Made by a program: the position numbers and the translations under genes. A DNA stretch of 64,000 bases from Euhalothece natronophila Z-M001. GTDB lineage: Bacteria > Cyanobacteriota > Cyanobacteriia > Cyanobacteriales > Rubidibacteraceae. The notes under the pieces were generated by a model that was not told the origin of the DNA, ran no database searches, and saw only the letters and a program-made list of their open reading frames with translations. Shown one piece after another: positions 1,071-58,588 of this stretch (positions within the stretch are counted from its first letter, which is position 1; each line of letters starts with the position of its first letter). The stretch spans positions 1,426,001 to 1,490,000 of the forward strand of contig NZ_CP042326.1 in the NCBI RefSeq assembly GCF_007904085.1, read 5' to 3'.

Positions 1071-3521
1071 ATGACAGATGACAATACTTTCGACTGGGAA
1101 CGTCTCCATAAAGCCCTCGCCGTAGAAGCGAAAAATGGCTATTCTGATATTGTCGGAAACCAGTATCGCTTTAGTGAGTTTTTTTGTTTAACCTTTGGGA
1201 AAGTTCCCCCTCAAACGACCCTGGAACAGGAAAAGCGGTGGCGGAATTTAGCCATAGAATTTTCTAATTATGGAGAAAAAACAGTTACCGAACGACAGCA
1301 ACTAATTGTCAAAGCCAGCCGTCTCCTTAAGGAAGTTCAAGAAGGGAAAACCGATACTCCTACTTCGGAACGAAAACCACTTGCCACAAAAAGTCCAGTT
1401 GCTAATTCCCAAGCCAACCTAGACTTAGATCAACCGCTACGAGATGTTCCTGGCATTGGGAGAAGTCGCAGTAATAGTTTATATCGTCTTGGTTTGGAAA
1501 CAGTACGAGATGTTTTATTCTATTATCCCCGTGAACATATTGATTACGCCCAACAAGTTAATATTGCTGACTTAGTGGAAGGGGAAACAGTGACCATTGT
1601 TGGCACTGTCAAGAGTTGTAACTGCTTTACCAGCCCAAAAAATAAGAAACTCACAATTTTGCAACTGGTTATTAAAGACCGCACCGGAGAAGTTAAACTC
1701 AGTCGCTTTTTCGCTGGGACACGGTTTGCCCATCGCGGTTGGCAAGAGAAACAAAAACGATTATACCCGAGAAGCGCGATCGTGGCAGCGTCAGGATTGG
1801 TCAAAAAGAATAAATATGGCATTACCCTTGATAACCCAGAAATTGAACTCCTCGACTCTCCGGGGGGTGAAATTGAATCAGTGAATATTGGGCGAGTGTT
1901 ACCCGTTTATCCCCTGACTGAGGGGGTATCTGCTGATGTCATTCGTAAAGCGGTCATTACTGTGTTACCCGCCGCGAAAAAGCTGCAAGACCCCTTACCA
2001 ACCCCTCTCCGTGAACAATATGGCTTTCCCACCCTATCAGAAGCCGTCACTAACCTTCATTTTCCCCCTGACCATGATACGCTTGCCCACGCTAGACGCA
2101 GACTAATTTTTGATGAATTTTTCTTCTTACAACTGGGGTTTCTAACTCGTCGTCAACAGCAAAAAGAAACGCAACAAAGTGCCATTCTCAACCCCACAGG
2201 AAAACTCATTGACCAGTTTAAGCAATTCCTTCCCTTCTCCTTAACCAATGCCCAACAACGGGTGGTGAGTGATATTTTACAAGACTTAAATTCGGAAACT
2301 CCTATGAACCGACTGGTACAAGGGGATGTGGGGTCAGGGAAAACCGTTGTTGCTGTATTTGCGATTCTCGCTGCCATTCAGTCAGGATATCAAGCGGCGT
2401 TAATGGCCCCCACAGAAGTTCTTGCTGAACAACATTATCGCAAATTAGTGGGTTGGTTTAACTTATTACATTTGCCTGTAGAACTCCTCACAGGGTCAAC
2501 GAAAACGGCAAAGCGTCGCGAGATTCATCAGCAATTAGAAACGGGAGAACTACCGCTTTTAGTGGGAACTCATGCCTTAATTCAAGATACCGTCAATTTT
2601 CAACGTTTAGGCTTAGTCGTCATTGATGAACAACATCGGTTTGGGGTACAACAACGGGCGCGGTTATTAGATAAGGGTCATTCTCCCCATGTTTTAAGTA
2701 TGACAGCAACGCCTATTCCTCGTACGTTAGCGTTAACCCTGCATGGGGATTTAGATGTATCACAAATTGATGAGTTACCCCCCGGACGACAGGAAATTCA
2801 GACAACGGTTTTACAAGGCAAAGAACGCCGTCAAGCCTACGAATTAATCCGCCGCGAAATTGCCCAAGGAAGACAGGCTTATATTGTTCTCCCTTTAGTG
2901 GAAGAATCAGAAAAATTAGATGTTCGTTCGGCGATTGAAGAACAAGAAAGATTACAAGAAAGTGTGTTTCCTGAGTTTAATGTAGGCTTATTACATGGGC
3001 GCATGAGTTCCCAAGAAAAGGATGAGGCGTTAACAGCTTTTCGGGATAATGAAACGCAAATTATTGTCTCCACAACGGTAATTGAAGTGGGGGTCGATGT
3101 TCCCAATGCAACCGTGATGTTAATTGAAAATGCGGAACGATTTGGCTTATCGCAATTACACCAATTAAGAGGAAGAGTGGGACGAGGAGAAGAGAAGTCT
3201 TATTGTTTGTTAATTAGTGGGTCTAAAACAGATACGGCTAAACAAAGATTGGGGGTTTTAGAACAGTCGAGAGATGGCTTTTTTATTTCGGAAATGGATA
3301 TGCGATTTCGGGGTCCTGGAGAAGTATTAGGGAAACGCCAGTCTGGATTACCTGATTTTGCTTTAGCCAGTTTAGTTGAGGATCAAGAGGTGTTAGTTTT
3401 AGCTAGAGAAGCTGCGGAAAAATTGGTCTTTGTGGATAAAAGTTTAGAGGATTATCCCCTTTTAGAAGAAGAATTAGAACGACGCTATCGGAAGTTAATG
3501 GGTAGCACTATTTTAGCTTAA
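1071..3521 (+). CDS. recG: ATP-dependent DNA helicase RecG
   Basis: RecG remodels stalled replication forks and branch-migrates Holliday junctions. Visible parts are a cyanobacterial N-terminal extension (about 1-120), a wedge/OB-fold domain (about 150-270), Walker A GDVGSGKT at residues 418-425, the DEQH box at 519-522 in VVIDEQHRFG, motif III SMTATPIPRT, and a helicase C domain with HQLRGRVGRG. The C-terminal FRGPGEVLGKRQSG segment is typical of RecG. At 816 aa it is full length. Its stop lies 2 bases from the stop of the next, convergent gene, so both 3' ends are tightly packed. Confidence 0.97.
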   Translation: MTDDNTFDWERLHKALAVEAKNGYSDIVGNQYRFSEFFCLTFGKVPPQTTLEQEKRWRNLAIEFSNYGEKTVTERQQLIVKASRLLKEVQEGKTDTPTSERKPLATKSPVANSQANLDLDQPLRDVPGIGRSRSNSLYRLGLETVRDVLFYYPREHIDYAQQVNIADLVEGETVTIVGTVKSCNCFTSPKNKKLTILQLVIKDRTGEVKLSRFFAGTRFAHRGWQEKQKRLYPRSAIVAASGLVKKNKYGITLDNPEIELLDSPGGEIESVNIGRVLPVYPLTEGVSADVIRKAVITVLPAAKKLQDPLPTPLREQYGFPTLSEAVTNLHFPPDHDTLAHARRRLIFDEFFFLQLGFLTRRQQQKETQQSAILNPTGKLIDQFKQFLPFSLTNAQQRVVSDILQDLNSETPMNRLVQGDVGSGKTVVAVFAILAAIQSGYQAALMAPTEVLAEQHYRKLVGWFNLLHLPVELLTGSTKTAKRREIHQQLETGELPLLVGTHALIQDTVNFQRLGLVVIDEQHRFGVQQRARLLDKGHSPHVLSMTATPIPRTLALTLHGDLDVSQIDELPPGRQEIQTTVLQGKERRQAYELIRREIAQGRQAYIVLPLVEESEKLDVRSAIEEQERLQESVFPEFNVGLLHGRMSSQEKDEALTAFRDNETQIIVSTTVIEVGVDVPNATVMLIENAERFGLSQLHQLRGRVGRGEEKSYCLLISGSKTDTAKQRLGVLEQSRDGFFISEMDMRFRGPGEVLGKRQSGLPDFALASLVEDQEVLVLAREAAEKLVFVDKSLEDYPLLEEELERRYRKLMGSTILA

Positions 3522-53773: not shown

Positions 53774-54238
53774 TTAGTTAGGAACAATGACTTGAATTTT
53801 AGCGTACCAATTAAAGTCACTTTTATTAAAGGTATAAATTCTTTTAATTTGATAAGCTAACATAGTTGCCAAGTGGATTCTATCAAAAACTTCTGCGCCA
53901 ATAACTGCAGTTTCTTCTAATAATGGGAGCCAATAGTCAATTAAATTTTCTGGTGGTGGCAAGATTCTCAGGTTAGGCATTTGGGAGAACCGTTTGATAC
54001 GTGAGACAGCTTCTTGGGGAGATATTGGATTCGTAATACTTTTTGAACTGGTTACAACAGCATAAAATTCTGCCAAGATTTGTGGGGAAATACAAAGAAT
54101 TTCTGTCTCATTCGGTCGGATAGTTTCTAAGGCTGCTCGATGTTTATCCCGATTTTCTGAACTTAAGTCAATGGAATAAACTAGAACATTGGTATCTAAA
54201 AATGTCTGTGTTTTATGAATTGATGCCATAAATGTCAC
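53774..54238 (-). CDS. PIN-domain toxin (VapC-like)
   Basis: A 154-aa PIN ribonuclease. Conserved acidic residues are seen in TFLDTNVLVYS (Asp14 region), ILAEFYAVV, and VFDRIHLATM (Asp about 118), with a final FNKSDF. VapC toxins cleave tRNA or rRNA. The start (ATG at 54238) overlaps the antitoxin gene by 26 bases, a usual arrangement. An ATG three codons later is possible. Confidence 0.85.
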   Translation of the reverse strand: MTFMASIHKTQTFLDTNVLVYSIDLSSENRDKHRAALETIRPNETEILCISPQILAEFYAVVTSSKSITNPISPQEAVSRIKRFSQMPNLRILPPPENLIDYWLPLLEETAVIGAEVFDRIHLATMLAYQIKRIYTFNKSDFNWYAKIQVIVPN

Positions 54239-54446
54239 TCCGATGTAAGGAATTTTTTATTCCAATATCGGCAACTAGCCAATCAAATTCTTGATGAAGC
54301 TGTTGTAACTTTTCGTCTTCATCTTTTTGACTTGTTTCTGGGATGGCTTCGTTTTGAGAGTTTTGTTTAAGACGTTCGATAAATGCTTGGACTTGACTAA
54401 TTTGTTCGGGAGTTAATCCCGTTAAATCTACTTGAAAATTACTCAT
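54213..54446 (-). CDS. Antitoxin partner of the PIN-domain toxin
   Basis: A 77-aa protein with an N-terminal helical part (TGLTPEQISQVQAFIERLKQNSQ), an acidic linker and a C-terminal DWLVADIGIKNSLHRSDIYG segment that could wrap the toxin. It precedes and overlaps the PIN gene. Antitoxin identity is from arrangement and size; no clear DNA-binding fold is visible. Confidence 0.65.
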   Translation of the reverse strand: MSNFQVDLTGLTPEQISQVQAFIERLKQNSQNEAIPETSQKDEDEKLQQLHQEFDWLVADIGIKNSLHRSDIYGINS

Positions 54447-56691: not shown

Positions 56692-56872
56692 CTTCCACAA
56701 TTAACCCTTAATAATCACCTATTAGTCATTCCTCATCGGTAAGAGCGACAACCAATAGTCCATAAGTCATTGTTGATGATCCCTGACCAATTGTCAATCG
56801 TCCCATTTATTGAAAATAATTCTGAATTATATTGACAATCTATTTCAATAAAGCTAGAGTATAGAGATAGTG

Positions 56873-57186
56873 TTCTCCTCTCGTTGAGAAGCAGGTGGGG
56901 TGATTCCAGCCGTTCGTGAAAACCTAGACAAACCTATCTAAGGTTGGTCAAAGCTATAAGCTGACGAACGTGCAGACAAGCGTGGTAAGACCTGTAATCA
57001 GGCACACTACGTTAATTGAGTCATCACACCCAAGTGTGAACGCCAGCATTTGGCTCTGTGGGCTATGGATTAATCAAAAGGCGAAAGGTTGATAAGCCTG
57101 TGTCCTAGCCGTAAAAAGCTCTTTTAACTTTGTCGAGGCCAACTTTACTGTTCATAACAGCTTGGCTTAAGAAGCCACTAACTACC
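56873..57186 (+). ncRNA. Omega RNA (HEARO-like) of the IscB element
   Basis: A densely structured region directly upstream of iscB. Paired elements: TTCTC/GAGAA (56873-56890); CGTTCGT/ACGAACG (56911-56970) closing AACCT-ATCTA-AGGTT (56931-56945); CGTGGT/ACTACG (56981-57011) closing CCTG/CAGG; TCACAC-CCAA-GTGTGA (57024-57039); GCCA/TGGC (57042-57054); GGCTA/TAGCC (57061-57110) with ATCAA/TTGAT inside; AAAAG/CTTTT (57114-57125). IscB uses such an RNA, with its guide at the 5' end. Here the guide would be the roughly 16 bases before 56873. Boundaries and guide are inference. Confidence 0.8.
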
Positions 57187-58467
57187 ATGTCAAACTATGT
57201 GTTTGTAATTGACCAAAACCAAACACCACTAAAACCAGTCCATCCTAAAAGAGCGAGGCAATTGCTTTCTTTTGGTAAAGCTGCCGTCTTTCGACTGTTT
57301 CCTTTCACTCTCATCCTTAAACAAGAGGTGTCTGAGCCAAATGTCCACCCACTAATCCTGAAAATTGACCCAGGCTCTCAAGTAACAGGCTTCGCTTTAG
57401 TTACCGAGGGAGGAGAAGTAGTTTGGAGAATGCAACTAGAGCATCGTGGAGGGATAATCAAGAAACGTTTAGAACAAAGACGAGCCTTAAGAAGACAGCG
57501 ACGTTCAAGACTTCGTTATCGAAAGCCTCGTTTCTTAAACCGTAAGCGCAAAGAAGGATGGCTACCCCCCTCGTTAATGCACAGAGTCCAAACCACTGAG
57601 ACTTGGGTGAAACGCTTGCTCAAGTTCTGTCCGATTCAAGAAATCTGGATAGAGAGAGTTAAGTTTGATACCCAGTTGATGGAAAATCCTGAGATTAGTG
57701 GCCAGGAATATCAGCAAGGAACCTTGCAAGGCTATACTGTCCGAGAATACCTCCTCGAAAAGTGGTACAGAAAATGTACTTACTGTAAGAAAGAAGGTAT
57801 CCCTCTCCAAGTAGAACACATCTATCCTCGGTCTAAAGGAGGAAGTAACCGAGTGAGCAACCTTGGTCTGGCTTGTGAGAAGTGTAATCAAAAGAAAGGC
57901 AATACACTCATTGAAGATTTCTTGAAAAGGAAACCAACTCTCCTTGAGAGTGTCCTTAAACAAGCGAAGACTCCTCTTAAAGACACATCAGCAGTTAACG
58001 CCACCCGTAAAAAGATTGTCGAGGTAATCTCAAAACATTCCTCACTCAAAACAGCGACAGGGGCGCAAACCAAGATGAATCGAGTCCGTTTAGGATTACC
58101 AAAAGAACATTGTTTAGACGCTGCTTGTGTGGGAGAGGTTGAGAGGTTAACCATTTTGTCCGATCAACCACTAATGGTGACAGCGACAGGGACAGGAGGG
58201 AGACAAAAATGCCAAACTAATAAGTTTGGGTATCCAATCAAGCATCGTCCTTTGAGACCAATTCAAGGCTTTCAAACAGGAGACATTGTTAAAGTTGATA
58301 TCCCGAAAGGGAAAAATCAAGGTCAATGGAGAGGGCGTTTGTGTCCTTATTCGGATGGAAACTGTGAGATTTACCCGAAAGGTCGTAAAAGACTGGGAAC
58401 TAAATTATCTAATGTTTCAGAAGTAATGCATCGTAAAGATGGCTATAAATATCGCCATCAGCCTTAG
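57187..58467 (+). CDS. iscB: IscB RNA-guided HNH/RuvC nuclease
   Basis: IscB is the ancestor of Cas9 and is guided by omega RNA. The 426-aa protein shows the PLMP domain (about 1-45: VFVIDQNQTPLKPVHP), RuvC-I LKIDPGSQVTGFAL with Asp61, an Arg-rich bridge helix (LEQRRALRRQRRSRLRYRK, 95-113), RuvC-II IWIERVKF with Glu156, an HNH domain with CTYC (197-200), VEHIYPRSKGG with His211 and ACEKCNQ (230-234), RuvC-III HCLDAACVG with Asp311, and a C-terminal domain. All catalytic residues seem intact. The frame is open to a TTG at 57130, inside the RNA; the ATG at 57187 gives the family start. No transposase is adjacent. Confidence 0.93.
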   Translation: MSNYVFVIDQNQTPLKPVHPKRARQLLSFGKAAVFRLFPFTLILKQEVSEPNVHPLILKIDPGSQVTGFALVTEGGEVVWRMQLEHRGGIIKKRLEQRRALRRQRRSRLRYRKPRFLNRKRKEGWLPPSLMHRVQTTETWVKRLLKFCPIQEIWIERVKFDTQLMENPEISGQEYQQGTLQGYTVREYLLEKWYRKCTYCKKEGIPLQVEHIYPRSKGGSNRVSNLGLACEKCNQKKGNTLIEDFLKRKPTLLESVLKQAKTPLKDTSAVNATRKKIVEVISKHSSLKTATGAQTKMNRVRLGLPKEHCLDAACVGEVERLTILSDQPLMVTATGTGGRQKCQTNKFGYPIKHRPLRPIQGFQTGDIVKVDIPKGKNQGQWRGRLCPYSDGNCEIYPKGRKRLGTKLSNVSEVMHRKDGYKYRHQP

Positions 58468-58588
58468 AAATTGATTGAGATGACTAACTTTGTGGAATCA
58501 TGTCTAAGATTTTATTTACTGTTAATACCCCCATCTTTTTTTTAATAGAGACTAAACTAGAAAAGAGAGTTAAGCTAGAGAACAGTTC

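What the first reader, a model, noticed from the sequence alone, without database searches (positions are those of the whole stretch)
56857..58588. Intact-looking IscB nuclease with its omega RNA, without transposase
The 426-aa protein shows every expected part (PLMP, RuvC I-III with Asp61/Glu156/Asp311, bridge helix, HNH with two CxxC pairs). The roughly 310 bases before its ATG fold into at least eight perfect or near-perfect stems, including CGTTCGT/ACGAACG and TCACAC/GTGTGA. IscB elements are guided by the 5' end of this RNA, which is encoded by the flank of the insertion. It lies between divergent upp and crtH with no TnpA, so it is an orphan or trans-mobilised system. IscB itself is known; this compact copy with a complete RNA is a good candidate for an active member.
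Basis: partly seen in the sequence, partly recalled or inferred. Interest (0 to 1): 0.75.

Follow-up and report, generated by a model that had tools for sequence, protein, structure and literature searches.

The report
IscB mobile element using CCC sites
This is a real and apparently intact IscB element, a small mobile DNA that encodes a Cas9-like RNA-guided nuclease and its guide RNA; it belongs to a cyanobacterial lineage that inserts in front of CCC rather than the usual ATGA/GTGA, so it is a modest but testable new variant of a known system.

Summary
Window 57187-58467 encodes a complete 426-aa IscB with all RuvC and HNH residues, preceded by a covarying omega RNA (56910 to about 57149). 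Rfam HEARO matches below its gathering score (68 versus 83 bits) because it misplaces this lineage's 5' helix. A second near-identical copy in the same genome fixes the element at about 56910-58527 (1618 bp) and shows that it moved. Empty sites in relatives show exact insertion 5' of CCC without target duplication. All 13 IscB insertion sites of this type read CCC at the right end, where typical cyanobacterial IscB elements have ATGA/GTGA. That position is the expected TAM. Of 25 residues fixedly different between the two groups, 24 lie in the WED and TAM-interacting domains. CCC is thus the predicted TAM (untested) and 56894-56909 the predicted guide. This copy split the terminator of a genus-conserved, single-copy small-RNA-like gene between upp and crtH, whose promoter probably drives the guide RNA. 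No TnpA lies near about 130 related loci; the mobiliser is unknown. ORF-less mini-elements with complete omega RNAs use the same CCC rule in two sister genomes. Known kind; new TAM/insertion-site variant; activity not shown.

The parts
56910..58527 (+). Whole IscB element, 1618 bp, CCGTTCG ... GTTAATA; the right end is uncertain by about one base
   Evidence: Two copies with unrelated flanks; empty sites in relatives
56894..56909 (+). Predicted 16-nt guide GGTGGGGTGATTCCAG, host flank DNA
   Evidence: Position 5' of P1; about 16-17 nt guide in OgeuIscB (PMC9640706); inferred
56910..57149 (+). Omega RNA scaffold
   Evidence: HEARO match 56947-57148; covariation
56911..56970 (+). P1 hairpin, arms CGTTCGT (56911-56917) and ACGAACG (56964-56970)
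   Evidence: Compensatory changes in P1 across relatives; fold z-score -4.4 as DNA
57187..58467 (+). iscB, 426 aa: RuvC D61/E156/H308/D311, HNH H211, bridge helix about 88-118, WED/TI about 317-426
58528..58532 (+). CCCCC at the right junction: CCC of the target, predicted TAM
   Evidence: CCC at all 13 IscB sites of this type; empty sites
56832..56860 (+). Promoter-like TTGACA (56832-56837), 17 bp, TAGAGT (56855-56860) of the interrupted small-RNA-like unit
   Evidence: Conserved in six of six genus genomes; transcription not tested
56894..56900 (+). 5' arm (GGTGGGG) of the host terminator, split by the element
   Evidence: Intact terminator in five sister genomes
58529..58543 (+). 3' arm (CCCCATC) and T-run of the split host terminator

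Best explanation
An OMEGA (IscB/omega RNA) insertion element of about 1.6 kb, non-autonomous because it carries no transposase. A transcript that starts in the host flank reads through the left junction, so the last 16 or so flank bases become the 5' guide of the omega RNA. IscB binds this RNA and should cut DNA that carries the flank sequence followed by CCC, that is, the unoccupied site in a sister chromosome or strain; repair from the occupied copy would restore the element. In this copy the transcript most likely starts at the promoter of the small-RNA-like gene whose terminator the element interrupts. Shown here: protein and RNA integrity, the element ends, a second copy, CCC at the insertion sites, and concentration of group-specific residues in the DNA-reading domains. 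Inferred: transcription, guide length, CCC as the working TAM, cleavage and homing.
For: IscB family scores and conserved catalytic residues; fold match to IscB structures; omega RNA covariation; two near-identical copies with different flanks; exact insertion 5' of CCC seen in empty sites of five loci in many genomes and at this locus in sister species; 24 of 25 fixed differences between CCC-type and RTGA-type proteins in WED/TI; RTGA at the right end of the majority group agrees with the NTGA TAM measured for the related IsrB (PMC9581776); conserved promoter upstream of the guide.
Against: No expression or cleavage data. CCC could be only the transposase's target. The CCC and RTGA groups are separate parts of the tree, so part of the domain signal is descent. 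The mobiliser is unidentified. Sister genomes have four Cs at the junction and this genome five. The AlphaFold model is of medium confidence (mean pLDDT 73.8).
Confidence: 0.72

Rival explanations
1. A stranded copy: protein and RNA still look intact because the insertion is recent, but the element no longer moves and the nuclease plays no part.
For: No transposase in the element, and none with matching ends found in this genome or in two sister genomes; copy B has lost its last two residues.
Against: Two nearly identical copies, catalytic residues conserved across more than 90 relatives, RNA pairs kept by compensatory changes.
Confidence: 0.2
2. CCC is the target motif of the transposase only; the nuclease reads a different TAM or none of these bases.
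For: The insertion motif is what was measured; TAM recognition was not. TAMs reported in the papers read here are purine-rich or TG-containing (NNRR, ATAAA, NTGA).
Against: RTGA-type elements show the same position matching the NTGA TAM measured in the related IsrB; protein differences between the groups concentrate in WED/TI.
Confidence: 0.22
3. The element is moved by a serine recombinase of the IS607 type with a CC/GG core, not by a Y1 (IS200/IS605) transposase.
For: The right end has no hairpin; the left end begins with CC, so each junction can also be read as a 2-bp core.
Against: All sites have three Cs, more than a 2-bp core needs; the left end has a hairpin, and IscB elements are reported with IS200/IS605. 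No recombinase search was made.
Confidence: 0.2
4. The host has taken over the system as a regulator or defence that targets sequences matching the small-RNA flank.
For: Insertion in a conserved small-RNA-like locus that keeps its promoter.
Against: The insertion is unique to this genome, nuclease residues are intact, and partial guide matches elsewhere in the genome lack a following CCC.
Confidence: 0.04

Closest known systems
IscB/omega RNA OMEGA systems (OgeuIscB, OrufIscB, TbaIscB)
   Same: Domain order, catalytic residues, omega RNA 5' of the gene, guide at the RNA's 5' end, no or rare TnpA
   Different: Here 426 aa, while the IscB chains matched are 441 aa or more (the solved OgeuIscB is 496); P1 of the RNA diverged; predicted TAM CCC against NNRR (OgeuIscB) and ATAAA (OrufIscB)
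HEARO RNA, Rfam RF02033
   Same: Full-length match with shared core and 3' helices
   Different: 15 bits below gathering; the 5' helix is replaced by a clade-specific P1
Majority cyanobacterial IscB elements (L020, L046 and others)
   Same: 49-58% of protein residues, RNA core, TnpA-less
   Different: Their right end has a hairpin and ends before ATGA/GTGA; different WED/TI residues
IS200/IS605 elements with TnpB
   Same: Insertion next to a fixed short motif without target duplication
   Different: No TnpA and no right-end hairpin

Membership tests
IscB nuclease | Family profile above curated cut-off | tested here: met
   NF040563 446 bits against 175
IscB nuclease | Complete RuvC (D, E, H, D) and HNH catalytic residues | tested here: met
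   D61, E156, H308, D311, H211, matching D61/E193/H340/D343 and H247 of OgeuIscB
IscB nuclease | RNA-guided DNA cleavage | not testable with these tools
   Needs biochemistry
HEARO / omega RNA | Match to RF02033 at gathering score | tested here: not met
   68 bits against 83
HEARO / omega RNA | Conserved covarying structure 5' of iscB | tested here: met
HEARO / omega RNA | RNA is transcribed with a flank-encoded guide | not testable with these tools
   Conserved promoter only
IS200/IS605 transposon | Insertion next to a fixed short motif, no target duplication | tested here: met
IS200/IS605 transposon | Hairpins near both ends | tested here: not met
   Left end yes, right end no
IS200/IS605 transposon | Y1 TnpA in the element, or with matching ends in the genome | tested here: not met
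IS607 transposon | 2-bp core as the only target requirement | tested here: inconclusive
   All sites have CCC, three bases; recombinases not searched

The most novel reading that the evidence does not exclude
A lineage of IscB elements changed its insertion motif and the TAM read by its nuclease together, between RTGA and CCC, with the change visible in the WED/TI domains. In this genome it obtained guide expression by landing in the terminator of a small-RNA gene, and nuclease-free omega RNA mini-elements with the same CCC rule have multiplied in sister genomes.
Probability: 0.4. Interest if true: 0.62.

Novelty: new variant of a known kind. Interest (0 to 1): 0.5.

Why it matters
If CCC is the TAM, natural pairs of RTGA-type and CCC-type proteins show which residues of a compact Cas9 ancestor set DNA specificity, and how a transposon's insertion site and its nuclease's TAM change together. 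A C-rich TAM in a 426-aa IscB would widen the sites that miniature editors can reach. The terminator insertion gives a concrete test of how IscB elements obtain transcription of a guide that lies outside the element.

Tried and rejected
HEARO at gathering threshold: none. Identity of the disrupted small RNA: no Rfam match; IsaR1 was considered, but the papers held gave no sequence or position that could test it, so it is left unnamed. Self-targets of the guide in the genome: partial matches only, those read lack CCC. IS607-type 2-bp core: compatible with single junctions but does not explain the third C. Closer relatives on plasmids or viruses: plasmid matches all below 60% identity; the best viral match is 53% identical. 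TnpA with the same ends in the genus: none found. The library lacks the HEARO paper of 2009 and the OMEGA paper of 2021; what rests on them (ATGA/GTGA sites of HEARO, coincidence of insertion motif and TAM, HEARO copies without ORF) is from memory.

Full report
1. Observation. The ORF 57187-58467 encodes 426 aa. NCBIfam guided_IscB scores 446 bits against a cut-off of 175, and Pfam RRXRR and HNH models agree. The best solved relatives are IscB proteins. A model built from 27 relatives has mean pLDDT 73.8 and pTM 0.67; its best Foldseek matches are IscB structures, 8csz at E = 1.1e-24. Superposition is weak (TM about 0.5, large rmsd), so the model supports the fold only. RuvC D61, E156, H308, D311, HNH H211 and both CxxC pairs are present and conserved.

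2. Omega RNA. Nothing in the window reaches a gathering threshold. With permissive settings HEARO aligns over its full length at 56947-57148, 68 bits, E = 4.5e-13, 15 bits below gathering. The model places its 5' helix inside the real P1 hairpin. In relatives P1 reads CGTTCG/CGAACG, CGTTAG/CTAACG, ACCTAG/CTAGGT and TCCTGG/(C)CAGGA. Over 19 sequences and 32 pairs, 91% of cells pair; 158 cells have changes on both sides, against 54 +/- 6 in shuffles (0 of 500 as high) and 15-27 when partners are slid. The structure was written from the first sequence, which favours it on cells paired but hardly on double changes of that size.

3. The element. The same genome holds a second copy at contig position 1769078-1770699. 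The copies share 1623 aligned bases with five substitutions, all within 58411-58459, and one indel. One substitution makes codon 425 of copy B a stop. The flanks are unrelated, so the element moved. The left end is CCGTTCG (56910); the right end is ...GTTAATA (58527), followed by CCCCC in both copies.

4. Insertion rule. The nearest relatives outside the genus fall into two end types; one shares the CCG[CT]T left end and the ACCC right end with the window element. Eight sites of that type were rebuilt as joined flanks and searched in 30 genomes of one genus. Five sites gave empty versions, and these read left flank, CCC, right flank, apart from a few sites where later substitutions changed a C. 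A query with only two Cs needed one extra base in most alignments. The element therefore enters exactly 5' of CCC with no duplication or loss. All 13 IscB sites of this type (the two own copies, one in G003 and ten others) have CCC at the right; bases beyond vary. The majority elements instead end before ATGA/GTGA, which agrees with the NTGA TAM measured for the related IsrB (PMC9581776). By the same logic CCC is the predicted TAM here.

5. Protein evidence for a TAM change. Between 11 CCC-type and 30 RTGA-type proteins, 25 positions differ without shared common residues: 10 in WED (48 columns), 14 in TI (57 columns) and one in the other 314 columns. The domain limits are approximate. Position 388 is Arg in all 30 RTGA proteins and Met, Tyr or Cys in CCC proteins; 394 is Glu in all CCC proteins and Asp or Asn in the others. 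In IsrB an Arg reads the G of TTGA (PMC9581776); whether 388 is the equivalent residue was not shown. The groups lie in separate parts of the tree, and the CCC label needs two changes on it, so descent contributes to the signal.

6. The site. In the five other genus genomes the region downstream of the same flank holds a short transcription unit: TTGACA, 17 bp, TA[TG]AGT, then GTGTTCTCCTCTCGTT, then a terminator GGTGGGG-loop-CCCCATC followed by a T-rich run. Its 5' motif occurs once in each of six genus genomes and in none of 287 other genomes of the order. In this genome the element separates the two arms of the terminator. The unit's promoter now reads into guide and omega RNA; this is inferred from the layout. 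Relatives have four Cs at the junction where this genome has five, which leaves the right end uncertain by one base.

7. Mobiliser. No TnpA-like ORF lies in about 130 IscB loci, in line with sparse association reported in general (PMC9755519). The own genome has one intact and one broken Y1 gene, each beside a TnpB gene. Y1 loci of two sister genomes do not share the ends. The right end has no hairpin, the left has one. The mobiliser is unknown.

8. ORF-less relatives. Genome G001 holds nine closely similar short elements (about 0.5 kb) and G003 one, each with a CCGCTCG left end, a complete omega RNA, an inverted repeat and a right end before CCC, but no nuclease gene. The only IscB found in G001 is RTGA-type. 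They multiplied without a cognate nuclease now visible in that genome. The window's own genome has none of them.

9. Judgement. An intact-looking OMEGA element of a known kind. What is new is the CCC insertion rule, the matching differences in the DNA-reading domains, and the insertion into a host terminator that supplies a promoter to the guide. Activity is not shown.

Noticed in passing
L241-L249 (G001), L250 (G003): Ten ORF-less mini-elements of about 0.5 kb carry a complete omega RNA and insert before CCC; nine are in a genome whose only IscB is RTGA-type.
   Followed up: partly
window 56832-56909 and 58529-58543; L080, L081, L083, L084, L086: A small-RNA-like unit of about 60 nt between upp and crtH, single copy in six of six genus genomes, with no Rfam match; its upstream AT-rich region is also conserved.
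   Followed up: partly
window 58411-58459 against L009: All five substitutions between the two copies lie within 49 bp of 1.6 kb, as if a third, diverged copy had recombined there.
   Followed up: partly
L010 (G003), left and right flanks: The G003 copy has its left flank in an ABC transporter ATPase gene and its right flank in what reads like an Asp/Glu racemase gene, which suggests recombination between two copies of the element (gene names from the translated sequence, not searched).
   Followed up: no
L086 (G003), about 2110-3080: Directly after the intact small-RNA terminator G003 has an insert of about 0.9 kb that reads like a MazEF-type toxin-antitoxin pair (not searched).
   Followed up: no
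L030, L161, L162, L139, L155, L159: Short palindromic repeats (CGTTCGCGCAAGCGTGTGCGAAGCACTTGG and CGTTCGCGTAGCGGGACGAAGTCCGG) are inserted at the same place in the 3' part of several omega RNAs.
   Followed up: no
L011, L139, L145, L154-L163 (family f14): A further end type, left C[AT]CCTAG and right TTCCTG or CAGA, that may be another insertion-site/TAM class.
   Followed up: no
window 53774-54446: Two small overlapping minus-strand ORFs that look like a PIN-domain toxin and its antitoxin (not searched).
   Followed up: no
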